Source: Rugalucina vietnamica (lineage: Eukaryota > Mollusca > Bivalvia > Lucinida > Lucinidae). Taken from it: DNA of 64,000 nt. The stretch spans positions 16,885,851 to 16,949,850 of the forward strand of contig OZ024878.1 in the NCBI GenBank assembly GCA_964017185.1, read 5' to 3'. This document shows positions 3,972-52,488 of this stretch, piece after piece; position 1 is the first letter of the stretch, and the number at the start of each line of letters is the position of its first letter. The notes beneath the pieces are model-generated. The model was not told the DNA's origin. It saw only the letters and a program-made list of their open reading frames with translations, and did not search any database. A program made the position numbers and the translations under genes.

Positions 3972-4430
3972 AGAGGATATTTTACTTTTTTGAATTGAAT
4001 ACCAAATATATTTAATCGAGTGTGTTGATTTTGTACATTTTTCCCATTGAAGAGGCAGGCGGTGAAAATGCAAAACAAAAAAAATATTGAAAACACAAAT
4101 ATTTTTGGTACACTCTTCCTTACGTTCTAAATAAAAAAAATAAGAACATGAACACCAATACTTTATGTTATTTCGTAAATAACTGAGTCAAAGGCGTTAG
4201 AATTTCTGACGTGAAACACTTTTTAATGACGTCAAGTGAATGGAAACGTCAGAAGTTATCAGAAATTTACAGTTAAAATATCGGCTGATATCAATCACTT
4301 GTGAAAATCATCAGATATCTCAACATACACTTTACATAATTTACACCTATGTAATACATTTATCTTTTTTGCCATTGAAGATACGGTTAAACATCATTTC
4401 AAAATCCAATATTAAATTTTGATAATGCAA
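3972..4430 (+). repeat. MITE family 4 copy (TGACGTCA-containing)
   Basis: Shares AGAGGATATT-type ends, a GAATACCAAATA segment, a CACCGCCTGCC-type segment and a TGACGTCA octamer (4227-4234) with the inverted copy at about 11600-12132 and, more distantly, with 38307-38796. The central hairpin present in those copies is missing here. Right boundary is approximate. Confidence 0.55.
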
Positions 4431-4559
4431 CATTCATCTGTCTGGGCCTACCAGTTATCGCCAGAACTGAACAACTTTTTTCAGCGTTCTGCAAAATAGA
4501 CTCCATAAAAAAGGAAGAATTAAAACGAATGAAGAAAGAAAAGAAACTTATTATGATAA

Positions 4560-4560
<1 letters not shown>

Positions 4561-4596
<36 letters not shown>
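4561..4596. repeat. Poly(A) tract, 36 A
   Basis: An uninterrupted run of 36 A, followed by TAAATAAATT. On the minus strand it is a T-rich tail directly downstream of the tRNA-like fragment at 4604-4660. Confidence 0.95.
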
Positions 4597-4598
<2 letters not shown>

Positions 4599-4603
4599 AA
4601 TAA

Positions 4604-4660
4604 ATTGGCGGATACGCGGCGAGATTCGAACCTGTAAGAGTCTGATTAATGGGGCCGACA
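4604..4660 (-). other. tRNA 3'-half-like fragment
   Basis: Read on the minus strand this contains GGTTCGAATCTC (4621-4632), a good T-loop/B-box match, followed by a GC-rich acceptor-like GCCGCGTATCCGCCA. A matching 5' acceptor arm and D arm are not found, so this is a tRNA-derived fragment or SINE head remnant rather than a working tRNA. Confidence 0.45.
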
Positions 4661-4689
4661 GAATTCTAACGGCATTACTCATGTAATTA

Positions 4690-5904
4690 TTAATATTTAT
4701 GGTCTATAAATAATAATCTAAAAATAGTTGTCATTATCGGCTGTTTTCCCGTTATCAGGTTTTTTATGTTATATGTAGATATATTCGGAATAGGAACCAG
4801 TGCCATGCTTAATTGATACCGTATCATTTTCCCGCCCTTGGTTACTAGAAGAGAAAAGAGAATCAGGCTATCTCGGCTTCATTCGTACCTTCAGGGTTAT
4901 CATAAAAAAAACTATTGAAGTGACCAAGGCAGCGTAGCGCTAAATACAAACCGCGACGAACTATTATTATTATGAAGAACAGGCAGGCACTACAGGCATA
5001 ATCAATGATAGAAATCATGTCTTAAGCATGTCGTTTATAGATTAGAAACCGAAATAACAATTTGTATCGAAATAATTGGGGACGAATATGCCTAAGGCTT
5101 GCAAAGACCGCAGACTGATGACCGCCGACCGAATCACTACCCATGGCCTCTAAGCATTATTTTTAATTTGAAACGTTAGTAACTTTCAAACTTTTAAGTG
5201 TCCCAGTTGACAAAACAATCGATTTACTTTTTGTATGTCTACAGCTTTACATCCTAAAATAATCATATTGACGAATAAACAATCTTTTAAAACCGGACTT
5301 CTTTTTTTCTCGGATGGATATCTATATGGGCCTTTTACATTACAGTTATAGCTATAGAATAATACATTGAAGGGTTGAGGCTATAAAGAGAACATATCGT
5401 AAGCCGAGTGAGTAGCTATTTCCAAATAGTTATACGGACTTAATTAAATATATGAAAATGAACATAATATGCAAACAGCATATCTACATACAGATAAACA
5501 TGCATGCAATGAACAGAAGAACTTTCCTGTAGGCTATATACATACATGTATAAATTGTAAAATATACATATATATTGTATAATGTAGATAAGTCTTGACT
5601 TACAATAAAGTGGACGCAACGTCATGGGCGTGACAGCCAATGACAATTAATGCCATGCTATATGGGCAATATATCGGATATCTACATACAAATAATAAGA
5701 AGCTGACCATTAATTGGGTTCTTGAATATCCGTTCTGACACCGTGAGTGATTTATTCTGAGCAAAAGTAGACTCTTACGGTCCTTCCAGAATCTGGAGAC
5801 AAATACTCTGACGACTGTGTCGAATAAACGCCCTGAAGTCATTTCACAGATAATTCCTTGTGCTAGCTCATTTAGCTTCATTGAAATAAGCAATAAAACT
5901 TAAC
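4690..5904. other. No gene recognised
   Basis: The longest frame, 97 codons on the minus strand (5600-5893), has no recognisable motif and no second copy. Confidence 0.5.
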
Positions 5905-7920: not shown

Positions 7921-7944
7921 GTGCAGGCAAGCTCCTATCTGAAA

Positions 7945-8213
7945 CATCAGGAAAACATGTCCGTGTGTTGAATACCCCCTTAAACCCCACTTTTATATAG
8001 TAAAACTGGGGTATGCCTATTTTTCTTATTTTTGCTCCAAAACATAAATTGTGGGTACTCGTTAGAACCGCCTCGACGAGGCGGTTCTAACGTGTACCCA
8101 AAATCTATGTTTTGAGCAAAAATAAGAAAAAGATCAAATTTGTTCAGTTGAAAATTTTCAATTTTTAAAGCTAAAAAAATCTCTGTTTATTGCATGGGCA
8201 AGTTTTCGTAATG
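7945..8213 (+). repeat. MITE family 3, best full copy
   Basis: About 270 bp. The ends CATCAGGAAAACATGTCC and, on the opposite strand, CATTACGAAAACTTGCCC form an imperfect 18-bp TIR. The centre is an inverted repeat around GTTAGAACCGCCTCG/CGAGGCGGTTCTAAC, flanked by pairing words (TTGCTCCAAAACATA and AATCTATGTTTTGAGCAAA). A 25-bp direct repeat with one mismatch surrounds the insertion (7921-7945 and 8213-8237), far longer than a usual target duplication. Confidence 0.85.
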
Positions 8214-18069: not shown

Positions 18070-18285
18070 ATATACCATGAAAGTTTTATATATCCATTAA
18101 AACGTAAGATTATTTTACCGAACTTTTAGATAAACAATAAAGTCTGGCACTTTCAGGATTTCCCGTCACAGTCGCATATTTTTGGTCACAGTACGAATAC
18201 ATTTTCCTGATGCTCTTGTAGATTCCATATCATCTTTATGTGATGGTTTGTTAGCTACGCCAATATTTCTATGAAAGAACGACAC

Positions 18286-18515
18286 GAGGCGCAGCACGAG
18301 AAAACCAACAATTTGCAAAAGCGAAAACAAACGCGCATACCAGCTTCGCGTTAACCGTGAAGCTGATCAGTGCCTTTGTTTTCAATACACATATAGCATA
18401 ATTATCTTGAATAAAAGAAACCTCAAGCTTCTAGCCTTCTTCTGTGACTCTACAACTTGGTTTGTGTCAGGCCTGGCTGGAAACCCAAATCGCTGGTTTT
18501 CTCAAGCAAAGGCTC
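18286..18515 (+). repeat. MITE family 1, copy 7
   Basis: Diverged ends (GAGGCGCAGCACGAGAAAAC and TTTTCTCAAGCAAAGGCTC). The hairpin at about 18322-18385 has accumulated mismatches. It lies between CAATATTTCTATGAAAG and the downstream module, which in copy B (around 50130) are nearly adjacent. Confidence 0.75.
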
Positions 18516-18989
18516 ATACGTTGTATTAAAAAGTGAGTTCTGTTGCCCAATGGTTTCAAAGTCAGAATATTCAAAGTATTCACCATTATATGCCAGCATG
18601 TCTTATATCAGCATGACCTGCAGCGGCACACTGGCCAGAAAATTAGATTGTCTGATAAAAAAACTAGTCTAAGATTATATTTATTGGCAATGAATAAAAG
18701 AGTCCTATGTCTATATAAATATCCGGACAATACAATTCTTGAATGCCCAACCATTGAAGGGGTATGTGCGGCAGACATACGAATTGTATATGATTAATTA
18801 AAATGTAGAAACAGATCTCGACAGTTGCCTGTTCGGCAACCAAATTGGTTCGTAAACATGTATACATATTAGATATAGCTCGTTTAACATTTATTTCACT
18901 GTCGTAAATATAAGCTCCATTTTCATTTGGTGCGTAAGAACTGTTCACAAATTATTATAGCGGTCATCAAGACACACTCTGAAGCTGTT

Positions 18990-19175
18990 GCAATGTCTTT
19001 CTGAACATTGATGCAAAGTAATTGAATAAAAATTAAACTGAGACCCTTTAAGAACAGTGAACATATTGCAGAGAAAGGGGGTGGGCCACACCATGATTTC
19101 GGCTACCTAAGCCTCAGTGACCCATTAGATTGGGCAACAAGAGCTAAATATATTATGCCCGTCGTAGATAAATTG
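18990..19175 (+). repeat. Family F repeat, copy shared by A and B
   Basis: Starts near AATAAAAATTAAACTGAGAC and holds AACATATT...AGAAAGGGGGTGGGCC. It can be read in frame as a peptide similar to that at 44900-45050 (the word GYLSL followed by DP is kept). Its partner is 50605-50760. Confidence 0.65.
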
Positions 19176-19755
19176 ACCGAAGTCCTATGTCGTGATGCTT
19201 TGTGGCCAAAACCCACACGAACGCTATGTAAAATTTCTATTACACACATTTTGTAATCTACGTATAACAAGTCCTTATCGGATTGAGTTTTTGAGAGTAT
19301 AACTCTGATGACAGAATCTCTCACATCGAAATAGTTCAAAGTGGAAATCTGTTTTGTCATTTCCCAGCCTAGCTTTGGGCGGCCGATGATTCACGGTACA
19401 TGCAAAAAGTCAAATCCTATCCAATACCAGTCTACTTTCAGATGCTTCCAATACAGTAGATTAAAGTTCATATGCAGTGTGTATCACATAATTACTCGAT
19501 ACACGTTTAAATAAGTCAACAAGTGCACTTCAGAGTTTTCTCTGATCCTTTTCCAGGATATTAAGTAATTGACTTCTGTATAAACCTTATAACATATACA
19601 ATAAACTGTCTAACGAGTTCCATAATCGAAAAGACAAGTATTATTACAGTTTCATTTATCATTAACATTCTGTTATAGACTGATGTCCAGTAATGCGAAT
19701 AGGGTATGGACTTGATGCATCGAAATAAGTGAAATTCTAAACAAATCAATGCAAA

Positions 19756-19759
19756 TTAA
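19756..19759. other. TTAA target duplication, left
   Basis: Directly outside the left GAGCAATTCCGTG end. The same TTAA occurs once at the empty site in copy B (51378-51381). Confidence 0.85.
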
Positions 19760-21539
19760 GAGCAATTCCGTGTAAAAACCAACCAAAGTGTGGCCACGCA
19801 TAGTCTCAGATTTTAACGAAAACCTGATTTTCGGATAGAGGGTCAAAAACGATGTATTGAAACTTCCCTTCGTTTTTTGAAAATATGCATGGTTGCCATG
19901 GAAACCACACTAGAAGGTTTTGGGCTTCAAAACAGCATTTTTTGAGTGAAAATTGGCACTTTTTCAAACACAACCTAGACATCACCTAACTTGGTATCTT
20001 AATTTTGAATGCATACAGTGGTACAGATATATATACTAAAAATTACTGTAACTTAGCATCTTAGTATAATGACAGTCTTTTAGCTATGGTAGTCGTAAGG
20101 TGGGTGGGGTTTCCCATTTTTTCAATTTTATCAAAATGTCATTTTTCAGCATATTTTGAGAACATGAAGAAAAAAATTGAGGTAAATTTAAGAGGCCTCA
20201 CATAGTTGTCATGAAAGATCATTGTCAGCATGGCCAGTTAATATAAAATCTTAGTGGGCACTTCATAAACAAAAATTTCAGAGACATCTAAATCTACCTA
20301 CTAGGACAAGACCCCATAAAATTGTGTTTTTATAATATCAAGGTTAAAGAATGAGGCTATCCAAATATTCTTGACTTAACACTAAATGAGAATTTTAAAC
20401 AGTTATATAATGATATAAAGCATCTAAAAATACTTATAAAGCAATAATTAATTGCATTTAAAGTGTTAAATGACAATGTAGAAGTACCCCACCCACTTAA
20501 ATTAACATGGAAACTGGTACATTTTCAACCTGAAACAGAAATTATTACAAGTAAAATGTGATAAAATGCTATAGTCAAGAGACATATTGTATATTTAGTG
20601 CAAAACCAATGAATTGTTCACCAGTAAAACAATGGTTACCATGGTAACACTTAGAACAAACATACATGGTCGCATCTTAAATAGCAATGGCAAATAGACT
20701 TCATTGCTGGTAACTTCATACAATATATCAAACATCATTTTTTTGATTATTTTTATGTTGTAAATCATTAGCAAAATGTTTAAATACTCATAAATATGCT
20801 TTACTGTCTAAGGTACTCAATGACAGGATAACCTTACCCCACCCACTTAATTAACATTAAGAGCAATTCTCTGTGACCACTTAAATTTTTTCACAGGGCC
20901 GTGCAACGCATAATCACCGATTTTGCTGAAACTTTCCTATCTTGGTTATTTAAACACAAAACTTTTTAATCAACACTCATTTGGTCCAATTTCATTCCCG
21001 TTGCCATGGAAACGGCAAATGAATATTTTGGCAAAATGTGTGTCCGAAAATCACTTAAACTGGGTATTTTCCAGCTGAAACAATTACTTTATACAAATTC
21101 AGATCCAGCTTCTGGTCCCTGTTTATCAATATATAACACATTCTGGTTAGAAATACAAAAAACAAACATTGATTTGGAAAACCTCTGATTTTATCGTGGC
21201 CCTGCAAAGTGGGTGGGGTTTCGAAGATTTGAAAAATGTGATTTTGAAGCATTTTCATGGACTATTTTCATAGTGAGTGCAGTCGGTTGCAGATATACGC
21301 GCATATTTATGATATCCAACAGTGTTTTGTTAACCAAGTTCTGAAAATACATGTTTGGGAAGTTAAGTCTGAATATGCGTAACCATAGCAACAATGATGG
21401 TACTGTCACAAAACGCAAATTTGTGAGTGTCTGTCATTTTGGTCTCATAGAATTCTAATAAGAGGACATAATTGATTGTAAATTATTTGATACATGTATG
21501 TTGCAATTGAAACTACTCTTTAGAAAATTTTGCATATAT

Positions 21540-23994
21540 TCTTCAGTGACCTTCTAAAGGTCAAGGTCAAGGTCACAGAATAGAGAAAAATGGCACAAAA
21601 TTGGCCTTTTCCCATGTTCAAGTTGATTTATGCATAATTGAGGCTCAAATTTCTTACTTTATTGAATATTTATGCATATCACAACAAAGTATTTCATGTT
21701 GAGATATTTTTGTCCACCAGGTGACTTCAAGGTCAAGGTCAAATATCATTCAGACAATCCTCCTGCTGACATTAAATAACCTTTTAAGGGTCAAGGTCAA
21801 GGTCAAAAATGCAAGAAAATGGCTTAAATTGGCATTTTCTTACCAGTATTTTGTTATGTTTCAAAGAGTGTGTTGCAAAATTTCCTTAATATTTGTTTTG
21901 AAAGCTTGAGATATGTTGTATATGAAACAAAGGTTAAGAAAATATGGCATTGAATCTACAGTGACCTTCAGAAAGTCAAAGTCAAGGTCACGTTAGAGAA
22001 AGATAACAAAAATTGGCTTTTATTTTGCTCATGTTATAGTTGATTTGGCCATAATTTAGGCTCACATTTTTTTTCCCTTATTGAATATTTATGCACATCA
22101 CCACGATGTTTTTCACGCTGAGATATTTTTGTCCACCAGGTGACTTCAAGGTCAAGGTCAAGGTCATGAAAAGTTCAATTTTTCAGGGGGTAAAATGAAG
22201 TTTTTTGTTGAAGAAGCAAACAATTAAAGTGTTAATTTTTATCGTATTAAGCTTTTTCATTTTAACATGTATTGCTAAGTTCAATATCATTCAGACAATC
22301 CACCTGCTGGCCTTAAATTACCTTTTAAGGGTCAAGGTCAAGGTAAAAAAAAAGCAAGAAAATAGTTTAAACAGGCATTTTCTTACCAGTATTTTGTTAT
22401 TTTTCAAAGAGTTTGGTGCAACATTGCCTAAATATTTGTTTTGAAAGCTTGAGATATGTTGTATATGAAACAAAGGTTAAGAAAAAATGGCATTGAATAT
22501 GCAGTGACCTTCGGAAAGTCAAGGTCAAGATCACGTTTGCTCATGTTATAGTTGATTTGGCCATAATTTAGGCTCAAGTTTTTTTCCTTATTGAATATTT
22601 ATGCACATTACAACGAAGTTTTTCACGCTGAGATATTTTTGTCCACCAGGTGACTTCAAGGTCAAGGTCAAGGTCACGAAAAGTTCAATTTTTCAGGGGG
22701 TAAATGAAGTTTTTTGTTGAAGAAGTAAACAAATTAAAGTGTTAATTTTTATTGTATTAATCTTTTTCATTTAAATATGTGTTGCAAAGTCAAATATCAT
22801 TCAGACAATCCACCTGCTGGCCTTAAATTACCTTCTAAGGGTCAAGGTCAAGGTCAAAAATGCAAGAAAATGGTGTATACGGGCATTTTCTTACCAGTAT
22901 TTTGTTATTTTTCAAAGAGTTTGGTGCAAAATTGCCTAAATATTTGTTTTGAAAGCTTGAGATATGTTGTATATGAAACAAAGGTTAAGAAAATAAAGCA
23001 TTGAATCTGCAGTGACCTTCGGAAAGTCAAGGTCAATGTCACGTTAGAGAAAGATAACAAAAAAATGTTTTGTTTTGTTTTTTTTGCTCAAGTTAAAGTT
23101 GATTTGGTCATAATTTAGGCTCAAGTTTTTTTTCCTTATTGAATATTTATGCACATCATCACGACTTTTTTCACGCTGAGATATTTTTGTCCACCAGGTG
23201 ACTTCAAGGTCAAGGTCAAGGTTACAAAAACTTCAATTTTTCAGGGGGTAAAATGAAGTTTTTGGTTGAAGAAGTAAACAAATTAAAGTGTTAATTATTA
23301 TCGTATTAAGCTTTTTCATTTAAATATGTGTTGCAAAGTCCAATATCATTCAGACAATCCACCTGCTGGCCTTAAAGGGTCAAGACAATCCACCTGCTGG
23401 CCTTAAGGGTCAAGGTCAAAAATGCAAGAAAATGGTTTAAACGGGCATTTTCTTACCAGTATTTTGTTATTTTTTCACGGATTTTGGTGCAAAATTGCTT
23501 TAATATTTGTTAAAACGCTTGAGATATGTTGTATATGGAACAGCAGTTAAGAAAAAAATGGCATTGAATATGCAGTGACCTTCAATGGCATTGAATCTGC
23601 AGTGACCTTCTGAAACTGAATTCTTCAAGGTAACAGAATCAAGAAAATGACATGAAAATGTCATTTTTGGCCAATATTCAATTTTATGCTGCAATAATTG
23701 TTCCATGGTATTCGAGTTATCATGAATGATTATAAATGTTTACACAAAGTCTTTCAATCTGTGATAATTTTTCTCCACCAGGTGACTTCAAAGTAAAGGT
23801 CAAGGTCTCAAAACTTTGAATTTTAGGGGGTAAAATGGAGTTTTTTGTGTTAATTGTAAACAAATTAAATTATTAATTTCAATCATAGTATGCTTTTTCA
23901 TTTAAATATGTGTTGCAAAGTACGATATCATTCAGACAATACACCTGTTGACCTAAAATAACCTTTTAATGGTAAAGGTGAAGGTCAAAGATGC
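21540..23994 (+). repeat. Left-arm tandem array of ~0.5-kb units with TCAAGGTCA clusters
   Basis: Units are marked by GTCCACCAGGTGACTTCAAG (or close variants) at about 21712, 22131, 22641, 23189 and 23773, spaced 419, 510, 548 and 584 bp. Each unit has three AGGTCA clusters: after CCACCAG, after CCTTTTAAGG, and after CAGTGACCTTC. TCAAGGTCA occurs about 21 times in this arm. Internal deletions and a small internal duplication (23380-23410) explain the uneven lengths. Confidence 0.85.
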
Positions 23995-24356
23995 ATGCAT
24001 TTTGTCTTGCGCATGTGATCTGGATTTCATTCCCCTCACCTATAGAGGTTCAGAGGTACTGTGAGGTTAGGGCCCAGTAAAACCGGTTTAAGTCCCCCCA
24101 GTAATTTTGTTTTACTGATCGTTCCAAGGCGGTGCTTCTGTTGTGGTTCTATTTGTTTTTGTTTTGGGGTGGAATTTTCTGCTTTTTGAACCTTATGTGG
24201 ATTTACATATTTTTATTTAAGTTTGGGTAACTGAGTGGCCACCTGTTGAGAAATAGCTGCTTCTTCGGCTTACGATGTGTTTTCTGGTACCTGGTTGTCG
24301 GTTTAGTTTTTTCCCACCTCGGTTTCTTTCTGATTGCACCTTTTCCTGATCGTACA
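23995..24356 (+). mobile_element. Tail-family insertion in the palindrome spacer
   Basis: About 285 bp of this (24070-24356) matches the tail family found at 36525-36800 and, inverted, at 59019-59340, running from AAAACCGGTTTAAG to GCACCTTTTCCTGATCG. The preceding ~75 bp (GGATTTCATTCCCCTCACC...) is not seen in the other copies. It interrupts the otherwise symmetric arms. Confidence 0.65.
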
Positions 24357-24361
24357 CAAAT

Positions 24362-24525
24362 TTGAGAGGCTTATACACTCCCCATGAAAGAACATTGCCA
24401 TCTAAGGCAAATCTGAAAAAAGTAATATTAGTGGGAACTTCATAAACAAAGTTTTCAAGGACAATTAAATGTGAGCACTAAAGCAAGATCTCATAAATTC
24501 ATGTTTTCATAATACTGAGATTGGA
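24362..24525 (+). repeat. Direct diverged copy of outer-arm sequence in the spacer
   Basis: AAATTTGAGAGGC...CATGAAAGA...GTGGGAACTTCATAAACAAA matches 20186-20345 in the left outer arm in the same orientation, but is clearly diverged. So part of the outer arm exists three times: both arms plus here. Confidence 0.65.
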
Positions 24526-24719
24526 CCTGTGGCACTCCATACTTTTCTATATTGATACCTATATCTAAACATAAATCAGTTAAAAAATGGATGATTATAG
24601 CTGTTTCATATGCTGTACATTATATTTCAAACTTTAAAAAACAAACATTAAACAGTTTCGCACCAAAATCGGAGGAAAATAACAAAATACTGGTAAAAAA
24701 CGCCAGTTTCAGCCATTTT

Positions 24720-25940
24720 CTTACATCTTTGACCTTGACCTTTACCATTAAAAGGTTATTTTAGGTCAACAGGTGTATTGTCTGAATGATATCGAACTTT
24801 GCAACACATGTGTAAACATGTATAATCATTCATGATAACAAGAATGTCAAGAAACAATTATTGCAAAATAAACTTGAATATTGGCCAAAAAATGACATTT
24901 TCATGTCATTTTCTTGATTCTGTTACCTTGAAGAATTCAGTTTCAGAAGGTCACTGCATATTCAATGCCATTGAAGGTCACTGCAGATTCAATGCCATAT
25001 TTTCTTAACTGCTGTTCCATACACAACATATCTCAAGCGTTTTAACAAATATTATTACAATTTTGTACCAAACTCTGTGAAAAAATTACAAAATACTGGT
25101 AAGAAAATGCCCGTTTAAACCATTTTCTTGCATTTTTGACCTTGACCTTGACCCTTAAAAGGTAATTTAAGGCCAGCAGGTGGATTGTCTGAATGATATT
25201 GGACTTTGCAACACATATTTAAATGAAAAAACTTAATACGATAAAAATTAACACTTTAATTTGTTTACTTCTTCAACAAAAACTTCATTTTACCCCCTGA
25301 AAAATTGAACTTTTCGTGATCTTGACCTTGAAGTCACTTGGAGGACAAAAGTATCTCAGCGTGAAAAACGGTGTGGTGATGTGCATAAATATTCAATAAG
25401 GAAAAAAAACATGAGCCTAAATTATGGCCAAATCAACTATAACATGAGCAAAAAAGCCAATTTTGTGTTATCTTTCTCTAACGTGACCTTGACCTTGACT
25501 TTCCGAAGGTTACTGCAGATACAATGCCATATTTTCTTAACCTTTGTTTCATATACAACATATCTCAAGCTTTCAAAACAAAATATTTAGGCAATTTTGC
25601 ACCAAACTCTTTGAAAAATAACAAAATACTGGTAAGAAAATGCCAATTTAAGCCATTTTCTTGCATTTTTGACCATGACCTTGACCCTTAAAAGGTTATT
25701 TAAGGTCAGCAGGAGGATTGTCTGAATGATATTTGACCTTGACCTTGAAATCACCTGGTGGACGAAAATATCTCAACAGGAAATACTTTGTAGTGGTATG
25801 CATAAATATCCAATAAAGTAAGTGAGAAATTTGAGTCTCAGTTATGCATAAATCAACTTGAACATGGGAAAAGGCCTATTTTGTGACATTTTTCTCTATT
25901 CTATGACCTTGACCTTGACCTTTAGAAGGTCACTGAAGAT
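24720..25940 (-). repeat. Right-arm tandem array with TGACCTTGA clusters
   Basis: Complement of the left array but shorter: unit markers lie at about 25334 and 25752, plus a deleted unit between 24740 and 25130. About 11 TGACCTTGA words are present. Confidence 0.8.
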
Positions 25941-26043
25941 TATATGCAAAATTTTCTAAAGAGTAGTTTCAATTGCAACATATCAAATAATTTACAACCA
26001 ATAATGTCCTCTTATTAGAATTCTATGAGACCAAAATGACAGA

Positions 26044-26062
26044 CAGTAGTAGTAGTAGTAGT
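26044..26062. repeat. AGT/GTA microsatellite, about 6 units
   Basis: A short trinucleotide run inside the right arm. The left arm at the matching place (around 21430) lacks it, so it arose after the arms formed. Confidence 0.85.
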
Positions 26063-27805
26063 AAAGATTAGGCTTTTAACGTCATCCTGGGCCAAATAAA
26101 ATGACAGACACTCACAAATTTGCGTTTTGTAACATTACCCTCATTGTTGCTATAGTTACGCATATTCAGACCTTACTTCCCAAACATGTCTATTCAGAAC
26201 TTGGTTAACAAAACACTGCTGTATATCGTAAATATGCGCGTATATCTGCAACCGACTGCACTCACTATGATAATTGTCCCTGAAAATGCTTCAAAATCAC
26301 ATTTTTCAAATCTTCGAAACACCACCCACTTTGCAGGGCCACGATAAAATCAAAGATTTTCCAAATCAATGTTTTTTTTTTTGTTTTGTTTTTTTTTTTG
26401 TATTTCTAACCAGAATGTGTTATATATTCATAAATAGGGACCAGAAGTTGGATCTGAATTTGTATAAAGTAATTGTTTCAGCTGGAAAATACCCAGTTTA
26501 AGTGATTTTCGGACACACTTTTTGCCAAAATATTCATTTGCCGTTTCCATGGCAACTGGTATGAAATTGGACCAAATGAGTGTCGATTAAAAAGGTTTGT
26601 GTTTATATAACCAAGATAAGAAAGTTTCAGCAAAATCGGTGATTATGTGTTCCACGGCCCTGTGAAAAAATTTAAGTGGTTACAGAGAATTGCTCTTAAT
26701 GTTAATTAAGTGGGTGGGGTAAGGTTATCCTGTCATTGAGTACCTTAGACAGTAAAGCATATTTATGAGTATTTTAACATCTTGCTAATGATTTACACAA
26801 TAAAAATAATCAAAAAAATGATGTTTGATATATTGTATGAAGTTACCAGCAATATAGTCTATTTGCCATTGTTATTTAAGATGCGACCATGTATGTTTGT
26901 TCTTAGTATTACCATGGTAACCATTGTTTTACTGGTAAACAATTCATTGGTTTTGCACTAAGTATACAATATGTCTTTTAACTATAGCATTTTATCACAT
27001 TTAACTTGTACTAACTTCTGTTTCAGGTTGAAAATGTACCAGTTTCCATGTTAATTTAAGTGGGTGGGGTACTTCTACATTGTCATTAAACACTTTAAAT
27101 GCAATAAATCATTGCTTTATAAGTATTTTTAGATGCTATATATCATTATATAACTGTTTAAAATTCTCATTTAGTGTTAAGTCAAAAATATTTAGATAGC
27201 CTCATTCTTTAACCTCGATATTATAAAAACACAATTTTATGGGGTCTCGTCCTAGTAGGTAGATTTAGATGTCTCTGAAATTTTTGTTTATGAAGTGCCC
27301 ACTAAGATTTTACATTAACTGGCCATGCTGACAATGATCTTTCATGACAACTATGTGAGGCCTCTTAAATTTACCTCAATTTTTTTCTTCATGTTCTCAA
27401 AATATGCTGAAAAATGACTTTTTTGATAAAATTGAAAAATGGGAAACCCCACCCACCTTACAACTACCATAGCTAGAAGACAGTTCATTATAATAAGATG
27501 CTAAGTTACAGTAATTTTGAGTATGTATATCTGTACCATTGTATGCATTCAAATTTTAGAAAGCAAGTTATGTGATGTCTAGGTTGTGTTTGAAAAAATG
27601 CCAATTTTCACTCAAAAAATGCTGTTTTTAAGCCCTAAATCTTCTATTGTGGTTACCATGGCAACCATGCATATTTTCAAAAAACTAACATTGAAAAACC
27701 TGTTTTTGTGTGGTCCCTAATATATCAGTAAAGTATGAAGGAAATCCATGACCATGCGTGCCGAGCCCCCATAAGGATTTGGCTGGTTTTCACACGGAAT
27801 TGCTC

Positions 27806-27809
27806 TTAA
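27806..27809. other. TTAA target duplication, right
   Basis: Directly follows the right GGAATTGCTC end and is followed by GTAACAC, as at the empty site in copy B. Confidence 0.85.
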
Positions 27810-27904
27810 GTAACACTGTGTAAGCTGAATTATAGTGTTTTACGTTATTTTAGGCTTTATGAAAACCAAAATGCGTATAACCTTAGCTTCTTAAGTTAGG
27901 CCGA

Positions 27905-28300
27905 ACATAATTCGGCATCTCTGAGAGACATGTTCATGTATATACCAGCCGTGGGTCGAACTCGCAAGCTCTTTGTTGCAAAGCGAATACCTGGTAGATA
28001 ACCTTAGCAGAGCTTTCTAAATGCCATGATAGATTCTCTTCCATATTGTGAAATGCATACATTTCTAATTTGGCCGTGAAATTCACATTCTTGTTGAACA
28101 TCCGAGTTAACAATTTAATTTTTCAGTAACTTCGGGAAGGAGCTACAGCTTCCTGGGTATTCATCAGTACTGTGGGTAGTTAATTTGTCTTGATAAACGA
28201 CCTAACACGGTGCCTCGTATGGGGATCGAACTAAGGACATCTCGATTCGGAATCCGGATGCTCTAGATCTTCAACCTGGCCAACACGTTCTACTTCCCCA
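27905..28300 (-). repeat. tRNA-like (SINE-type) repeat, copy 2
   Basis: On the minus strand an A-box-like TGGCCAGGTTG (28272-28282) and B-box-like TAGTTCGATCC (28223-28233) are ~45 bp apart. Between them lies GGATTCCGAATC, an anticodon-arm-like word that would carry CCG. A second tRNA-like stretch, GCGAGTTCGACCC, lies at about 27955-27975. Stems are imperfect, so neither is a functional tRNA. Confidence 0.55.
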
Positions 28301-29469
28301 GATCCTTAATCTAAAGCAGTGCAGTACAACAAACACTGTACACGTTTATGATACGCATACTCATTTGTTACGTGTATCACCGTACGTGTAATATTAGACA
28401 CATTCAAAAGAAAGAGGACAAGCCATAGTGGACAGTTTAAGTGACCCTCTAAAATTCTACCTCGAGAGGCAGTATAAAAGTGGACAAAATGAAACAAATT
28501 ACGTAAAAATTTATCCGGACACGTTACAGCGTCGTGTATACGGAAACTCAGGAATGCTTATATGTCATTCTAGTCGAGATTAATGTAACAAGCATTTGAA
28601 GGTATTCAGTATTAGCAATAATTAACTTTAGGAATAGATTAACCGGAAGGATCAATCAATCACTAGAAACAGGACAAAATAAAAACAGACGCCCACAAGA
28701 CAGGAACTCGAACTAGCTTGCGTCTAGTTGTGTCATGATAGCATTCAATAATAGATAAAGTCCCAACCTAAATTAAACCTCTGGTAGGAAAAAATGCAAA
28801 TAGGGTATAATAGAAAGAGAACATACGTCAAGCTGATAAAGCAGCTTTTCCCGTAAAGGTATTTTCTTATGTTAATTTAAAAAAAAAAAAACCGCAAATA
28901 TTACAAGTACAATGTTGTGAACATGCAAAGGATTAGAACGAAAGTATATCCCAGTCCCAGTTAACAGCTATGGTAATTTTGGGACATTACTTCCATTTTC
29001 ATTTTATGGACCTTCTACCCAGCACTAAGGATACCATGACTTCCGGAATGTGTTTTGAATATAATACCTAAAGTAAAACAACAAATGCTTATATGTATGG
29101 ATGGTCAGGCTATACCACAACAATTGAATTTGACGTAGGATATACATGACGAATAGTACCTTCATGGGATCATTCGAATAACCTACCCATGTCGACTTTT
29201 CAGTTATAACCTCGGGACCTGTTTCTTGAATATGTATTGTTAAGCATTGATTAATATACCCAAGCCTTGCCCAAGGCTCAGAAATAAAGAAATGCGCTTT
29301 TTTGTATTTTCATTTTCATTTTTTTTCAATCTCTGTTGCTAGCTAGTCTAATCTATAGATGGGTCTCGATAAACTCAGCCAAGTCGACCGGAGAAAAATC
29401 CATTTTTAGACTAGCTACGTAGACTCTGAATTTGAATTTCAATATATACAAAAATATGTAGTTAGGCGC

Positions 29470-29526
29470 CTGAAAAACCGGTTTAAGCCCGCCAGTAACT
29501 TTGTGTTACTGATCGTTCCAAGGCGA
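29470..29526 (+). repeat. Tail-family internal fragment
   Basis: AAAACCGGTTTAAGCCCGCC...GATCGTTCCAAGGCG, 57 bp, cut at both ends and present only in copy A. It is not anchored at the tail end, so it is a deletion remnant rather than a fresh truncated insertion. Confidence 0.7.
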
Positions 29527-30112
29527 GTTTGTAAAATAAATCTTCTCACCCATCAGACAAGCATGTCCCTTTGTGTGCCTGTCAGAGATTTTTCTATCCC
29601 GGTACCAATACATTTCAACAGTCTCAACATGCCAGTCATTGCTACATTTAGCTACTAGAAATGCACACCTTATGTTTACTTCTATATCAGGAAGTGAGAC
29701 GCTTAGTGTCAGCTGGCAGAGACAAAAATACCTTTACAGGGGTTAATTCAGTAGCTTATCAATAGCTGGGATCAAATCAAAATCGACACAGTAATTTCTT
29801 TCTATAACATGTTTTGGGATTCCTCCCTTCTTCAGATAAAAATGTAAATAAAAGAAAATGCTTATCAATAGTAATTGTAGTCTGCTGCTTTGACAAACAT
29901 TTCAAAATTTAGTTTTGCTGAGGATTTTTTTGCACACAAGAACATGCTAATTTAATAGTTTTGTAAGGTGATTGAAAATACAAACTATGTTTTTTTCTCA
30001 AATGGCTAATTTGTATATTGTTTCATGGCAAACAAAATTACTGCCTGAACAGCACTTGAATCAAAGTCAGAGTCAAAATCGTTTAAGAGATGGTTGAGAA
30101 AAATAATCAGTG

Positions 30113-30275
30113 AGTGGTGTTGGGGCCTCAACAAGGAAATCTCATGCTCGTTTTCAGATTATTCAAGTCTCGCCCTCGACAGAGCCAAGGATCTGTGAAC
30201 GTGACTGAGATGTCCTTGTTGAGGCTAATAATCTGAAGCCCGAGATTTCCTTGTTGAGGCCTCAATCCCATCACA
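30113..30275. repeat. Foldback segment (CCTCAACAAGG arms)
   Basis: GGGGCCTCAACAAGGAAATC pairs with GATTTCCTTGTTGAGGCCTC, with inner words also pairing (CAGATTA with TAATCTG). Copy B (53490-53620) has the same arms but rearranged inside, as expected for a rapidly changing hairpin. Confidence 0.65.
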
Positions 30276-30664
30276 GATTCTTTTATTCTACAGAAATAAT
30301 CCTTGTTGTCCTAATGTTCAAATAAGCATTTGTCTTTAGTTCTATGCTTGGGTTCGCACGTCGAGTGAGACACAAGCAGAGAGTGTCAACTTTCTTTTGT
30401 TGCTAAGTATACATAACAAGGTACATATGAATTATTTGGCACGAAGCAGTCATGGCATAACAGAACTGCACAGGATCGAAAACGCTGATCAGCTGCGCGG
30501 CGTATGTTGGTTAGTCGTAGACTGTTCTGTCTATTCGGTCTATGAAACTTTAGATCTTGATCTCAAATGTTGTTTATATACAAACTGCTTGTTACTAACA
30601 CGACCTGTCTAGATGTTGCAAAAAGATAAAACAGGCATAAAACAGGCTGCTTAAAACGGCTTAG

Positions 30665-31004
30665 GCGGCCCTAAAAATATCCCCGTACATCATCCATAGT
30701 GCAGGCTATAGTTTCTTTTTGGTCCTTTGAGATAAGCGAGGATATTCTGAGAAATCAGATATTTATTATCGGTTAACATTTTCTTACAATGTTTAATATT
30801 ATTGGTCCCATTTAGATTATACTTGTCTTTGTATCGACTGCCCTGTTGAAAGTTGCTAAATTTCAGTAATTCTCTTTGGCTCCATGCTGCCAAATCTAAA
30901 GGGTCACTGACGAGACTAAATAGTCGAAACCGCGGTATGGTCCATCCCCTTTCTCATTAATGTGTTCACTGCTCTGAAAGGATCTCAGTTTTGAATTTTT
31001 ATTA
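30665..31004 (-). repeat. Family F repeat, near-complete copy, A only
   Basis: The minus strand partly reads through as a peptide (67 codons at 30690-30893, including the word ISQNILAYLKGPK) that lines up with 45000-45210 (ISQNTLADLKGSK in the matching frame). Upstream, on the minus strand, the words SEHINEKGDGPYR are readable, then a frameshift. In copy B the flanks are directly joined (about 53985: CAAACGACTAAATG...ATACTGCAAG), so the unit is an insertion here or a clean loss there. The peptide is not one I recognise. Confidence 0.65.
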
Positions 31005-31822
31005 AATACTGCAAATAAGGGAAGTATCATTTTGGCAGGTATTGTTGATGTCTTGTCAACAGATGATATAGCCCTTTGAAACTAATTTAATTTTGTCTAA
31101 GATTTAATCATTTATCAAGACATGCAACCAGTTTATTTCACTATTAATTTGTTACCACGCCCCATCTACATGTACGTTTCAGTGCCCTGCTATATATAAG
31201 CCTTACACTTATGGGACAATCTGGAAGTCAAAACTATGTTCTGTCCTCGCAATAGAAAATCACACTGGGATAAGGAGCTTAGTGTGAAACCCCTGTCATT
31301 TCCCCTACACTGCGGGACAATCAAAATTGTAATTGCCCGGCACTTTAGCCCGCCTATCTCTCACCCATTCCCGTAGGTGTGGGGGCGTAATTACAAATGA
31401 CTGGATCATATAATATGGGTAACTCGCAACTTAGTACAAAATAACCGTGTAACAATGTTACTTACCGTAAACTGTATTAAATCAAGTATTTCAAATACAT
31501 ATTTTAATTTTTAAATTCCAGTGCTCAAACTTAGAAACCTGTGTACCATGTCGGTATCTACTCTAATATATCCCTTAACAATGTAAACATTACATGTAAG
31601 TGTGTTTTCAATTTTGATTATCTTTACAGAACTAACAAATCAAACCAATAGAGACTGAGACTTTCAGCGTTTCCCGTTACATACTTGTTTTGTCCACAGT
31701 ACGAATACATAATTATGCGGTGATGTTCCAGTAGCTTATCTGATGGTGTATAAACTACGTATACATATCCCTGAAACGAACACATTTATGTTGTAAAGTT
31801 ATTATTTTCAACGCCACCATAA

Positions 31823-32125
31823 AAAGGTACAAGTAGACAATGATCAGGAAATGACGCAAAGAAATTCCCACTCCACAAACCAAGGGGTTGGAAAATACTT
31901 AAACGACACTTAGGTACTTTTACGATGAAAACATATCGTGAGCCGATTGAGCGGTTATTCCCCAATAGGCGGCCACGCATTTATCCGAACCGAACTAAAA
32001 TATGAAAACGTACAAAGGGCTCAAATAGCACAAAAAATCGACTCCAAAACACAAACAATTAGAACCACAACACAAGTATCGCCTTCGAACGATCAACAAT
32101 ATAAAATTATAAAATTAATAATACG
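31823..32125 (-). repeat. Tail-family copy in duplication A
   Basis: Minus-strand tail ending ACTTGTACCTTTTT. Extends to the GATCGTTC word and lacks the CCGGTTTAAG start. The orthologous copy in B is 55215-55490, so this insertion predates the duplication. Confidence 0.75.
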
Positions 32126-32781
32126 TCATGGACAAAATATTGCGCGCTTACCTGTTATATGTTATGCTGACCAGCGATATATTGTCCAGAATATCATGAA
32201 TATTGAATTAAATTTCTAATAAAAAGATCCAGATAATATTCATTGGCAATGAATAATAAATCCGATGGCATAAAAGAAGAACCCTTCGATTAGATAACGG
32301 GCCGACGCAATCATACTCTTATGCCCTCTCAGAATAAAGTGTGTCACCGGCGCACAAAGTTGTCCGTAATTTGTCAACTATTTTATACCCATATCTTTAT
32401 GACATTGTGTTCGTGATTATGTGTATTCGGTATTATTATCTCGGTCTTCGTGACATAATCTGAAGCTGTTGCAATGTCTTTCAGATTAGAGAGATGCCAA
32501 ATTATTGACATATATTTTGCAACGTCGTAGAAAAACATTCTGCACTAGAATCAGTTCCGTCATCTGAGCAGCGCTGTGGCTTAAAATCACTCAGAGAATA
32601 ATTTATTTCAGCTAGTTCTGATGAACTGTAATTTTATCTTATCAAGTACGCACCACCCTCCTTATCACCACGTAGACCCGTTTTAGTCCATGTACGTCAT
32701 GTAAAAAGAATTTCTCGCACCAAAGTAGTTCCATTGAAAATCTTGTCTGTCTTTGCCCATGCAAGCTGAGAGATTAATATT

Positions 32782-32988
32782 TGACCCAATTTCGGAATAT
32801 GTCTTTGATTTAGACTCCTCGTGAAAATTCTCGAAATTGCAGCGCAATAGTCTGGCGTTCGTTGCCGGTTTAAAAAGGGCTACTGATGTGTGTTCATTAC
32901 CCGAAATTGCGCAATATAGTCCATACTATCTCCCTTTGAATGTTTTTACTGCTCCCAAAGGATCAAACATTTATATTTTATTCAGTGT
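32782..32988 (-). repeat. Family F repeat, half copy, A only
   Basis: Matches 46330-46520 and 5905-6050. Copy B joins AAGATACTTCA directly to CTGTAATTACGTAG at about 56180, giving the empty site. Confidence 0.7.
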
Positions 32989-33279
32989 AATTACGTAGAA
33001 TGAAAATGCTAGTCATGGACAGTATGTCGGGTGTCTGAGTTATATCTCGATGATTCCAATACAACAGATGAAAGAATAAGCAACTCCCATAAATGTTTGC
33101 TCGGTTTTACATGTCTATGAATGCACTGCAGAGTATTCTTTTGTCGGTTTGTTAGGACTATAAGTAATGGATTTCTGTATAAATCTTATGACACATATAA
33201 TAAACTGCCTGACAAGTTCCATTATCGAAAAGACAAGTATCATTACAGTTTTTCATCAACAAGGTTGTGGTTCCAATCT

Positions 33280-33490
33280 TTTAATTTGCACCTCTTATGT
33301 GCATTTTTAAATATTTAGTTTAGTCAGCATATCTGAGAGGCTACCTTACGGAAACATCTTTTCACTCGGCTTGGATTTATTCTCTTTGTATAAAGAATTG
33401 GTTGTCAGCCTCGGCTTTTGGAGAGGAAGTTTCTTCGCGAGTGCGCCATTTCCTAATCATTTCTCCCTATTGTTATCTTTTCTGTTATAG
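33280..33490 (+). repeat. Old tail-family copy
   Basis: Recognisable by CTGAG...GGC...ACTCGGCTT, GGAGAGGAAGTTTCTT and GCGCCATTTCCTAATCATT in the tail-family order, but strongly diverged. Orthologues in B are 56515-56700 and 59960-60115. Confidence 0.55.
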
Positions 33491-34416
33491 CTTGTTGTCC
33501 AATTAAGCCGCTAGGTGCTAAATTTGATGTATCTAAATATGCGAAACAAATATGTGCAAGTTGCATTATACTATGTAAAATGCGGACATTTTGTAATTGG
33601 TCGCCAAATACTTATTGGAATACAGTATTAACAATAATTTAGACACTTCGCCTATATATGTGGGAAAAGAATAGATTGACCCTGCGCAAGACACCCGAAG
33701 TACATGTATATCATAGAAATTAATGGCTATACATTCCTTGACATATCGGAAAGAACATTGTGCATGAAAATTCTCCAAGCGCTAGTGCAAACGATTCCAA
33801 GAGCAAACTTTATCAGGTCAAGCATGTATCGAGCCACAGAAAACGAGACGAGTAATCAATTCCAAGATTCATTAGTTGATAGTTTCACTCAAATACAGGC
33901 TTGAGGGCTTTACAGCTCAGGATTTTCTTGGAATGAGTTAAACACTTGACCAAAAGTCGTAATTTCGTTAAACTAAATATCGGAAGGAGAAATCACTGTA
34001 CATTTATTTTCAAGAAAAGTACAACCTATTAGGCATTTACGAGGCAGAGCATTCTCTGATGAGAATACGCACTATCATGCACACTTCGTACATGTACTCG
34101 CACTGTTACGCTATGAATCGACCAAACTCTGTTAGGTTAATATTATATCAGGTCATTGCTTCCTACATGGCAATGTATATTTTTGGTCCATGGCTTGACC
34201 GGACACTTTTCTATACGTGTTGGCCAAGAAAATTCTTCCGGGTGTCTGATTTCCAATACAACAACGTAATGTAGAAGGACAGCATATACATGCATGCTCT
34301 TTTTTTACAAGTCAACAAGTGTACTGCAGAGTTTGTCAGGATGTTAAATAACATATTTCAGTATAAATCTTATGAATCGATATAAGCGAAACAAATAATC
34401 ATGAAAATTAACGGTT

Positions 34417-49765: not shown

Positions 49766-51377
49766 TTTCACTTACCGTAAACTGTATTGAAGCAACTATT
49801 CAAAAATGTTCATGTATGTGAATGACTGTTCTGAATAGCTTATTTATTCAAGTCGAATGTAAATTTGTTTTGTTAAATTTGTTTGGGTATTGAACACCAC
49901 TATGTATACATAAGTTAAGAAACCAACCGGCTACGTCAGTATCACATTGTTACATGTCCATTTACATCTTCTTTAATGTTACGGAAATTTCAAATTACCA
50001 GTATAGTCTGACACTTTCAGGATTTCCCGTTACACACTGGTTTTGGTCACAGTTTGAATACATATTTTGATGCTACAGTTGATTCCATATCATATTTATC
50101 TGATATTTTGTTCGCTACACGAATATTTCAATGAAAGCACACTGGCCAGAAAATTAAATCTTCTGATAAAAAAAAAACTAGATTATATTTGTGGCAATGA
50201 ATCAAAGAGTCAAAGAGTCCTATGTCTGTATAAATATCCGGACGATACAATTCTTGAATGCCCAACAAGTGAAGGGGTATGTACGGTAGACATACATGTA
50301 CGCCTTCTATATGATTATAATGAAGAAACAGATCTTGTACGTTGTCTATTCGGTAACCAAATTGGTTCGTAAATTGTCATCAACGATATGCTTTCAACTG
50401 CCCTATCATTGTGTGTATCAAATGATACAAGTACATGTATACATAATATATATAGTTCGTTTAACAAAATTCTTTTTAATCCACTGTCGTCGTAAATATA
50501 AGCTCCATATTCATTTGGTACATAAGAAATGTTCACCAGTTATTATCGAGGTCATCAAGACACATTCTGAAGCTGTTGCAATGTCTTTCTGAATAGACAT
50601 TGATGCAAAGTTATTGAATAAAAATTAAACTGAGACCCTTTAAGAGCAGTGAACATATTAAAGAGAAAGGGGGTGGGCCATACCATGATTTCGGCTATTA
50701 AAGCCTCGTCAGTGACCCTCTTTAGATTTGACAACAAGAGCTAAATATATTTTGCCCGGCGTAGATAAATTTACTGAAGCACTATGTCGTAATGCAAATC
50801 TGATCAGCTTTGTGGCCGAAACCCACACGAACGCTATGTTAAATTTCTATTACACACAATTGGTAATCTACGTATAACAAGTCCTTATCGGATTGAGATT
50901 TTGAGAGTATAGCTCTGATGACAGATTTTCTCACATCGAAATAGATCAAAGTCGAAATCTGTTTTGTCATTTCCCAGCCTAGCTTTGGGCGGCAGATGCT
51001 TCACGGTACATACAAAAATGCAACATCCTATCCAAGACCAGTCTACTTGGTGTCTGATTTTTATTCAGATGCTTCCAATACAGCAGATTAAAATACATAT
51101 ACAGTGTGTATCACATTCTTGTACTTGATGTACGTTTGAATATGTCAACAAGTGCACTTCAGAGTTTTCTCTAATCCTTTGCCAGGATATTAAGTAATTG
51201 ACTTAAATCTTATGACACATACAATAAACTGTCTGACGAGTTCCATAATCGAAAAGACAAGTATTTTTACAGTATCTTTTATCAATAACATCCTGTTATA
51301 GACTGGTGTCCAGTAATGCGAATAGGGTATGGACTAGATGCATCGAAATAAGTGAAATTCTAAACAAATAAATGCAA
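49766..51377 (+). repeat. Segmental duplication, copy B part 1
   Basis: The shorter partner of 16707-19755. It lacks the palindrome, MITE 2 and MITE 1 found in A. Frames such as 50067-50372 (101 codons, readable word RVLCLYKYPDDTILECPT) and its counterpart at 18543-18797 are open in both copies but differ by frameshifts beyond the shared part, so they do not qualify as genes. Confidence 0.85.
50605..50760 (+). repeat. Family F repeat, partner of 18990-19175
   Basis: Same start (AATAAAAATTAAACTGAGAC) and internal GAAAGGGGGTGGGCC. The frame is broken by an in-frame stop after FGY. Confidence 0.65.
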
Positions 51378-51381
51378 TTAA
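51378..51381. other. Empty TTAA site matching the 8-kb insertion
   Basis: Left flank AAATAAATGCAA and right flank GTAACACTATG match the outer flanks of 19760-27805, with one TTAA between them. Confidence 0.85.
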
Positions 51382-51479
51382 GTAACACTATGTAAGCTGA
51401 ATTATAGTGTTTTGCGTTGTTTTAGGCTTCATGAAAAACGAAATGCGTATAACCTTAGCTTCTTAAGTTAGGGCGAACA

Positions 51480-52322: not shown

Positions 52323-52488
52323 GATAGATTAGACTAGCTAGCAACAGAGATTGACCAAAATGAAAATGAAAATACGAAAAGCGCATTTCTTTATTTCTAA
52401 GCCTTGGGTAAGACTTGAGTATATTAATCAATGTTAAACAATACATATCAAAGAAACAGCTCCCAAGGTTATAACTGAAAATTCGACA
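52323..52488 (-). repeat. Micro-inverted segment relative to copy A
   Basis: Reads as the complement of 29191-29357 (AAAAGCGCATTTCTTTATTT here, AAATAAAGAAATGCGC there), while both outer flanks stay in the same order. TAGACTAGCTAG-type words sit at the edges. Confidence 0.8.

What the first reader, a model, noticed from the sequence alone, without database searches (positions are those of the whole stretch)
19756..27809. 8-kb TTAA-flanked palindrome with a sequence-verified empty site
The element is 8046 bp of almost complete inverted repeat with GAGCAATTCCGTG tips and TTAA on both sides. The paralogous locus at 51378-51381 keeps one TTAA with both flanks joined, so insertion with a 4-bp duplication is directly visible. 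TTAA targeting is known for piggyBac-like transposases, but these tips do not look like the piggyBac ends I know, and no transposase is inside. A mobile unit that is almost all inverted arms of about 4 kb would be an unusual TTAA foldback family.
Basis: partly seen in the sequence, partly recalled or inferred. Interest (0 to 1): 0.85.

Follow-up and report, generated by a model that had tools for sequence, protein, structure and literature searches.

The report
Two-layer TTAA foldback transposon family
This 8-kb stretch is one of about forty copies of a gene-less jumping element that is almost all mirror-image DNA, and its copies record how one half of the mirror can be copied from the other.

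Summary
Observation confirmed. Window 19756-27809 is an 8046-bp palindromic insertion with GAGCAATTCCGTG tips between two TTAAs; the paralogous site at 51378 has one TTAA. It is a mobile family: 75 exact TTAA+tip sites in the host genome (reversed-pattern control 0), and 38 of 40 scored left ends pair with a right end 1.7-17.7 kb away. None of 21 copies read has a long ORF, except one with a private insertion. It is a non-autonomous foldback transposon.

The arms are layered: ~1.1 kb inside each lies a second tip, TTAAGAGCAATTCTCTGTR, that also bounds a separate freestanding family ("A"; 26 convergent pairs among 86 sites).

The palindrome probably formed by copying one arm onto the other. Consensus left/right divergence falls from 27/296 (101-400 bp) to 33/1490 further in; nested A ends are of one type while two freestanding A copies have two; one copy, L014, has a left arm carrying right-arm states at 22 of 22 inner diagnostic sites.

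TTAA plus 5'-RR..YY-3' termini fit Kolobok better than piggyBac, but no tip-sharing autonomous element was found. Nearest kinds: foldback transposons (Tetris, Galileo) and MULEs with tandem TIRs. New variant of a known kind.

The parts
19756..19759 (.). left TTAA (one copy of the target-site duplication)
   Evidence: empty site at 51378-51381 has one TTAA
19760..19871 (+). left-specific end (L-end) with tip GAGCAATTCCGTG
   Evidence: outside the arm palindrome; 40 scored genome matches at 90-100% identity
19872..20856 (+). left outer arm, inverted copy of the right outer arm
20857..21440 (+). left nested A-type end beginning TTAAGAGCAATTCTCTGTG ('long' end type)
   Evidence: same tip bounds freestanding A elements elsewhere
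21735..23989 (+). left array of diverged ~520-bp tandem units with TCAAGGTCA motifs
23996..24621 (+). central spacer (~626 bp) not in the palindrome; holds a dispersed repeat at 24061-24325 that also occurs elsewhere in the window
24622..25740 (-). right (inverted) array, shorter than the left
26098..26699 (-). right nested A-type end, also the 'long' type, with TTAA at 26696-26699
26700..27688 (-). right outer arm
27689..27805 (-). right-specific end (R-end) with tip GAGCAATTCCGTG
   Evidence: 40 scored genome matches at 92-100% identity
27806..27809 (.). right TTAA
51378..51381 (.). empty site: single TTAA in the paralogous segment

Best explanation
The element ('B') is a non-autonomous cut-and-paste foldback DNA transposon, moved in trans by a TTAA-specific transposase, most likely of the Kolobok superfamily. 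Shown: palindromic anatomy, absence of long coding sequence, TTAA flanks, one exact empty site, about 40 dispersed copies with distinct L- and R-ends, and a second mobile family (A) sharing the first 13 bases including TTAA. Inferred: the transposase binds the shared end module (tip, ACGCAT..TC..GATTT, GTTGCCATGG.AAC, GTGGGTGGGGTTTC). Also inferred: the present palindrome arose when DNA repair in the founder of the main lineage copied the left arm (outer arm inward from ~400 bp, plus the nested A end and array) onto the right side, with the older inverted outer arms as the place of switch; one present-day copy (L014) shows the same kind of arm-to-arm copying, in the other direction. The composite multiplied as one unit using its outermost tips.
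For: 75 exact TTAA+tip sites, control 0. 40 L-end and 40 R-end matches scored (of 47 and 45 first-look candidates), 38 convergent pairs. These two searches do not demand TTAA: 40 of 40 L-end and 38 of 40 R-end matches begin at query base 1. Exact empty site for this copy; alignments through the join for 3 further copies of 21 tested. Inner tip: 169 sites at up to 1 mismatch; 86 exact sites without C at -2 (C being the nested context), of which 52 form 26 convergent pairs. Two freestanding A copies read at both ends have TTAA on both sides and unlike flanks. Consensus L/R arm difference 27/296 at 101-400 against 33/1490 at 401-1900 (12/700 in the outer arm, 21/790 in the nested part), Fisher p 1.3e-7. 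Per copy, 118-400 exceeds 401-1100 in 19 of 19 main copies, 18 clearly and L021 by almost nothing (3.5 vs 3.4%); of the older subfamily L025 does not (5.7, 6.9%) and L026 only slightly (6.5, 5.4%). The nested end is the long type on 36 of 37 ends found in the 19 main copies by the script's test, the 37th (L013 left) by eye, and on both left ends of L025/L026, while both freestanding A copies have one long and one short end. L014: left arm has the right-arm state at 22 of 22 diagnostic sites from 700 to 1720 and at 4 more (239-248), arms 0.1-0.5% apart there against 3-6% in most copies; L022 has a 4-site left-type patch in its right arm. Kolobok rule TTAA, 5'-RR..YY-3' (PMC9587614, passages); the tips here start GA.
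Against: No autonomous element with these tips was found, so the superfamily rests on target site and terminal dinucleotides. Sola3 also uses TTAA (recalled) and was not tested. The founder-copying model rests on 21 of about 40 copies and the ends of only 2 freestanding A copies. In L025/L026 only 4 of 12 diagnostic sites at 121-400 (162, 239, 241, 245) and 1 of 11 at 401-1100 (947) show left = B-left and right = B-right; at most others their two arms agree with each other, so most L/R differences, outer ones too, may have arisen within the main lineage, and the outer palindrome itself is older than the copying event. L021's right arm carries mainly left-type states from 239 inward without fresh identity, which I do not explain. 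In the whole-set alignment the per-copy distance at 1101-1650 averages 8.3% (median 5.3%; L012, L018 and L024 reach 22-34%, probably misalignment at private insertions), not lower than 118-400. Loss of an inner right arm in L025/L026 is not excluded.
Confidence: 0.7

Rival explanations
1. Nested insertion: a complete palindromic A element inserted at the TTAA in the exact centre of a smaller (~2.2 kb) B palindrome, and the composite then amplified.
For: A is mobile on its own with TTAA on both sides; at both nested junctions the flanking side reads ACATTAA / TTAATGT; the diverged copies L026 (right side) and L003 have other DNA beyond such a junction.
Against: Both nested A ends are of one type whereas 2 of 2 freestanding copies have two types. 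Consensus L/R divergence is low in both the outer arm beyond 400 bp (12/700) and the nested part (21/790). The insertion would have to hit the exact symmetry centre. No B copy without any A end was found among 21.
Confidence: 0.21
2. piggyBac-superfamily non-autonomous element moved by one of the intact piggyBac transposases in the genome.
For: TTAA target; the ten best PF13843 matches lie in open frames of 593-635 aa without stops.
Against: Tips begin GA, not CCY (the CCY rule is recalled; PMC9587614 contrasts Kolobok RR..YY with piggyBac). None of the 40 listed PF13843 matches lies inside any of 38 B pairs or 26 A pairs.
Confidence: 0.08
3. Not a transposon: a palindromic segmental duplication or assembly artefact.
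For: The window does contain a diverged segmental duplication around the locus.
Against: About 40 dispersed copies, unlike flanks, TTAA at both ends, exact empty site.
Confidence: 0.01

Closest known systems
Tetris foldback transposon, Drosophila virilis (PMC4079207; passages including part of the abstract)
   Same: Inverted arms made of an outer flanking domain plus variable numbers of tandem units, a non-coding middle, no conserved ORF, and shared ends with a second non-autonomous family (DAIBAM).
   Different: 8-10 bp target duplications and TIRs up to 1,735 bp, against TTAA and ~4-kb arms here; no second complete mobile tip inside the arm is described in the passages I saw.
Galileo / Foldback elements of Drosophila (PMC3573991, PMC3688188, PMC4168063: search listing only)
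   Same: Long, internally repetitive inverted repeats; repeats said to hold extra transposase-binding sites (Galileo, as cited in PMC4079207 passages).
   Different: Galileo belongs to the P superfamily (listing), not a TTAA system (recalled). No sequence comparison was made.
MULEs with multiple (tandem) TIRs in plants (PMC3310237; abstract and section 4.2)
   Same: A second, internal set of end sequences stacked inside the outer one and amplified as a unit; nested insertion and duplication are both considered there.
   Different: Mutator-like elements of plants; here the inner end also bounds an abundant separate mobile family, and the target is TTAA.
Kolobok superfamily, with T2-MITEs and XKol elements of Xenopus (PMC9587614: abstract and passages; PMC6004289: passages)
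   Same: TTAA target duplication and 5'-RR..YY-3' termini; ten XKol elements of 6.8-13.9 kb, with TTAA at 19 of 20 ends in the table; a T2-MITE (Xmix) carries an amplified internal segment.
   Different: The XKol ends listed start with AG, here GA; no foldback architecture is described in the passages I saw; no transposase in the element.

Membership tests
Foldback transposon (structural class) | long inverted repeats make up most of the element | tested here: met
   88% of W in inverted repeat; 0.35-0.91 across 21 copies, below 0.5 only in L024-L026
Foldback transposon (structural class) | arms contain internal tandem repeats of variable number | tested here: met
   ~520-bp units; array length differs between arms and between copies
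Foldback transposon (structural class) | mobile, with target-site duplication | tested here: met
Kolobok superfamily | TTAA target-site duplication | tested here: met
   TTAA at both ends, single TTAA in the exact empty site; the other, more diverged empty-site relatives read TTAG, TAAA, TTAA or TCAA
Kolobok superfamily | termini 5'-RR ... YY-3' | tested here: met
   GA...TC in B and A tips; rule from PMC9587614
Kolobok superfamily | encodes a DDD/E transposase of Kolobok type | tested here: not met
   no long coding sequence in 21 copies beyond a private insertion in one; at best a non-autonomous dependant, so not filed as a member
Kolobok superfamily | autonomous partner with the same tips in the genome | tested here: inconclusive
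   104 listed PF20700 matches (taken as Kolobok-like by recall) and 56 listed P2RX7_C/KolX matches, 0 inside 38 B or 26 A pairs; all lists are capped
piggyBac superfamily | tips beginning CCY (recalled) | tested here: not met
   tips begin GAG
piggyBac superfamily | TTAA target | tested here: met
   as for Kolobok
KolobokP | long terminal direct repeats around an internal coding region | tested here: not met
   repeats are inverted and no coding region is seen
Sola3 | Sola-type transposase with TTAA target (recalled) | not tested
   no model at hand

The most novel reading that the evidence does not exclude
A Kolobok-mobilised foldback lineage that grows in layers: end modules of successive families become stacked head to tail, and each layer is made symmetrical by repair copying of one arm onto the other, a process still at work in single copies (L014), while the extreme L/R tips stay distinct; the arms are thus a record of palindrome birth and upkeep inside a transposon.
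Probability: 0.38. Interest if true: 0.66.

Novelty: new variant of a known kind. Interest (0 to 1): 0.54.

Why it matters
How kilobase-scale foldback transposons acquire and keep their palindromes is unsettled; [quoted passage not shown] Here a young family (outer arms about 2-3% apart between copies) carries a divergence step, an end-type mismatch and one copy with freshly copied arms, which together help separate 'arm copied onto arm' from 'insertion of a ready palindrome' and can be tested in relatives. None of the titles and abstract starts listed by nine searches of the open-access library describes a TTAA foldback family; that covers only that library and those words. If transcribed, the 4-kb arms would be a source of long double-stranded RNA (inference).

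Tried and rejected
Autonomous partner: the five longest freestanding A-tip pairs are 11.4-15.9 kb; I sampled three of them (15.9, 14.6 and 14.4 kb) by twenty 250-bp pieces. Eight of the 20 pieces match the B-arm arrays or spacer side (including all four from the 15.9-kb pair), two match a private insertion of L015, ten match nothing held. Seven of those ten are open for 78-83 codons and look like LTR-retrotransposon parts: integrase hits for two of the four scanned with Pfam, the rest by eye. So these three show no sign of being the autonomous source; the other tip pairs were not read inside.

piggyBac (PF13843, 40 listed), KolX/P2RX7_C (PF20478, 56) and Mutator-like PF20700 (104): none lies in the 38 B or 26 A pairs. 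Other tips (TTAAGAGCAATTCNWTG): 6 sites; three lie in known B copies, three were not read.

Viral contigs: the first pattern gave 0 matches, the second 1, taken as chance after reading about 300 bases around it.

Local alignment of A and B ends without the first 30 bp did not beat shuffles (scores 29-30, shuffle maxima 29-33); their kinship therefore rests on the shared tip and exact motifs at similar offsets.

Insertion of an intact A into the centre of B was my first reading; I moved away from it. I mended that and moved the odds slightly (best 0.68 to 0.70, nested-insertion rival 0.22 to 0.21, novel case 0.35 to 0.38).

No protein structure prediction was made, as there is no protein.
Full report
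OBSERVATION. Aligned to its own reverse complement, 88% is covered; the uncovered parts are 1-116, 4241-4866 and 7934-8054 of the element. So it has a left-specific end (L-end), a right-specific end (R-end), two arms of about 4 kb and a centre of about 0.6 kb. No ORF of 80 aa or more overlaps it. The paralogous segment at 50433-52292 carries a single TTAA at 51378-51381 where the element sits in the other copy.

IT IS A FAMILY. The host genome (1.09 Gb, 47 contigs, unnamed) has 37 + 38 exact TTAAGAGCAATTCCGTG sites against 0 + 0 for the reversed control. I read 20 further copies in full plus this one. In all 21 both tips are intact and the flanks differ, but these copies were chosen because they have both exact tips. 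Searches with the 117-bp L-end and 121-bp R-end, which do not demand TTAA, scored 40 matches each (47 and 45 first-look candidates): 40 of 40 and 38 of 40 begin at base 1, the first base of TTAA. Of these 40 L-ends, 38 have a convergent R-end within 20 kb; spans run from 1679 to 17746 bp, 33 of 38 between 7.3 and 10.5 kb. Joined flanks of the 21 copies were compared with all DNA held. Four gave alignments through the join: W (exact TTAA, 92% over 404 bp), L022 (four repeat copies, 93-97%, reading TTAG), L016 (80-82%, TAAA) and L019 (75-86%, TTAA, TCAA or TAAA). Only W is a clean empty site.

NO LONG CODING SEQUENCE. In the 21 copies the longest stop-free stretch is 122 codons, except a 301-codon frame in L023, in a stretch that the other copies do not cover. 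Nine peptides scanned with Pfam at E 0.01 gave only integrase hits, in two of four retrotransposon pieces from A elements; none in the four frames from B copies nor in the L023 piece.

SECOND LAYER. About 1.1 kb inside each arm, after ACA, there is a second tip, TTAAGAGCAATTCTCTGTR. At up to one mismatch it occurs 169 times (79 + 90, control 0). Exact sites without C at -2 (C being the nested context) number 86, and 52 of these form 26 convergent pairs spanning 422-15,876 bp, 13 of them 5.3-6.5 kb. Two such freestanding 'A' copies read at both ends have TTAA on each side and unlike flanks. Twenty 250-bp pieces from three of the longest A pairs: eight match the B-arm arrays, and in the 14.4-kb pair they do so in opposite orientation on the two sides of a nested retrotransposon, which indicates that A is a foldback too. 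A and B ends carry the same motifs at similar offsets: 13 bp of TTAA plus tip, ACGCAT..TC..GATTT at ~50 (with variants), GTTGCCATGG.AAC at ~137-140 and GTGGGTGGGGTTTC at ~345-350. A local alignment score without the first 30 bp did not beat shuffles, so this kinship rests on the motifs.

ARM CONTENT. The inner arms are arrays of diverged ~520-bp units, longer on the left than on the right in W and many other copies. TCAAGGTCA occurs 21 times in W (shuffle mean 0.07) and once in the rest of the window; GTTRCCATGGHAAC 7 times (shuffle mean 0.01) against 2 in the rest of the window. By recall these resemble nuclear-receptor half-sites and RFX X-boxes; they may equally be transposase-binding sites, as argued for repeats in Galileo arms (cited in PMC4079207, passages).

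HOW THE PALINDROME AROSE. Outer-arm distances among the 19 main copies are L-L 2.6%, R-R 2.1% and L-R 4.75% between copies; within copies the mean is 4.75% over all 21. So most of the L/R difference was inherited from a founder. Consensus L and R differ at 34/100 sites in the first 100 bp, 27/296 at 101-400 and 33/1490 at 401-1900 (12/700 in the outer arm, 21/790 in the nested part; Fisher p 1.3e-7 for 101-400 against 401-1900). Per copy, 118-400 is more diverged than 401-1100 in 19 of 19 main copies (means 7.9% and 3.3%), though in L021 only 3.5 against 3.4%. Of the older subfamily, L025 goes the other way (5.7, 6.9%) and L026 drops slightly (6.5, 5.4%). Against a clean picture, the same alignment gives 8.3% on average at 1101-1650 (median 5.3%; three copies at 22-34%, probably misaligned private insertions); a separate alignment of the inner segment gave 5.2%.

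L025 and L026, about 5-8% from the others in the outer arm, have that arm on both sides but the nested A end and the array on the left only. At 162, 239, 241, 245 and 947 their left arms match B-left and their right arms B-right; at most other diagnostic sites up to 1100 their two arms agree with each other. So part of the outermost L/R difference is older than the split, and the rest arose in the main lineage.

Both nested A ends in main copies are of the 'long' type, as are the left ends of L025/L026, whereas both freestanding A copies have one long and one short end (the script labelled L013-left '?' but its letters are the long form with two changes, and L027's left tip was not found). The simplest history is that in the founder of the main lineage the left arm, from ~400 bp inward and including the nested A end and array, was copied in inverted orientation onto the right side. 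A broken right half that invaded the homologous inverted outer arm would do this. The break and the repair path are inference.

That such copying happens is visible in L014: its left arm has left-type states at 147-231 and 263-488 but right-type states at 239-248 and at 22 of 22 diagnostic sites from 700 to 1720, and its arms there differ by only 0.1-0.5%; its right arm has one left-type state, at 488. L022 has a left-type patch (4 sites, 1182-1217) in its right arm. L021 has mostly left-type states in both arms from 239 inward without fresh identity, which I leave unexplained.

RIVAL. Insertion of a ready-made A palindrome at the symmetry centre explains the TTAAs but not the equal end types; I give it 0.21.

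WHICH TRANSPOSASE. TTAA with 5'-RR..YY-3' termini is the Kolobok rule (PMC9587614, abstract and passages); Xenopus XKol elements with TTAA and AG-starting ends are a precedent (PMC6004289, passages). The genome has PF20700 open frames of up to 690 aa, which I take as Kolobok-like by recall, and long piggyBac frames, but none of the listed matches lies in a tip pair. The element is therefore not filed as a Kolobok member; it works like a Kolobok-type non-autonomous element with about 0.6 probability.

COMPARISON AND NOVELTY. As an architecture it is a foldback transposon like Tetris (outer domain, tandem-repeat domain, non-coding middle; 8-10 bp duplications; PMC4079207, passages). Its stacked ends recall plant MULEs with tandem TIRs, where nested insertion and duplication are both left open (PMC3310237, abstract and section 4.2). 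New here, as far as the nine searches show, are the TTAA target, the scale, the inner end that is also a mobile family of its own, and the traces of arm copying.

LIMITS. Ages in years are not given, as no rate is known.

Noticed in passing
G000 C4:68178757-68230326, C12:28967974-28994502, C2:67350015-67382641 (positions): Tandem arrays of PF20700 (Mutator-like) frames, mostly at ~4.98, 4.23 and 4.61 kb spacing, resembling the KolobokP multimers described in PMC9587614.
   Followed up: no
G000 C17:451668-461262: Two copies of one multi-piece PF20700 gene in head-to-head inverted order, similar in layout to a third at C10:38573821-38578020; perhaps a coding Kolobok-like element caught as a palindrome.
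   Followed up: no
window 59599-59666 (-): Rfam SECIS_1 match just above the gathering score (35.8 vs 35), overlapping the edge of a repeat found several times at 59-63 kb.
   Followed up: no
G000 C10:46596073-46596498: A 422-bp convergent pair of A tips: a possible MITE-sized relative.
   Followed up: no
window 18112-34385 and 49976-61062: Diverged segmental duplication (about 78-94% identity in blocks) around the locus; the element is in one copy only, so it probably inserted after the duplication.
   Followed up: partly
L023 element coordinates 4470-5372: A private insertion with a 301-codon open frame whose letters look like a reverse transcriptase (YLDD; recalled); no Pfam hit for its first 150 aa.
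   Followed up: partly
L003 from base 1501 on; L026 right side: Diverged right-end copies continue past the inner TTAA junction into other DNA (TTAAAAGAATG...), perhaps the state before the inner arm was added.
   Followed up: partly
L021, both arms, diagnostic sites 239-1720: Both arms carry mostly left-type states although they differ by about 3%, unlike every other main copy.
   Followed up: no
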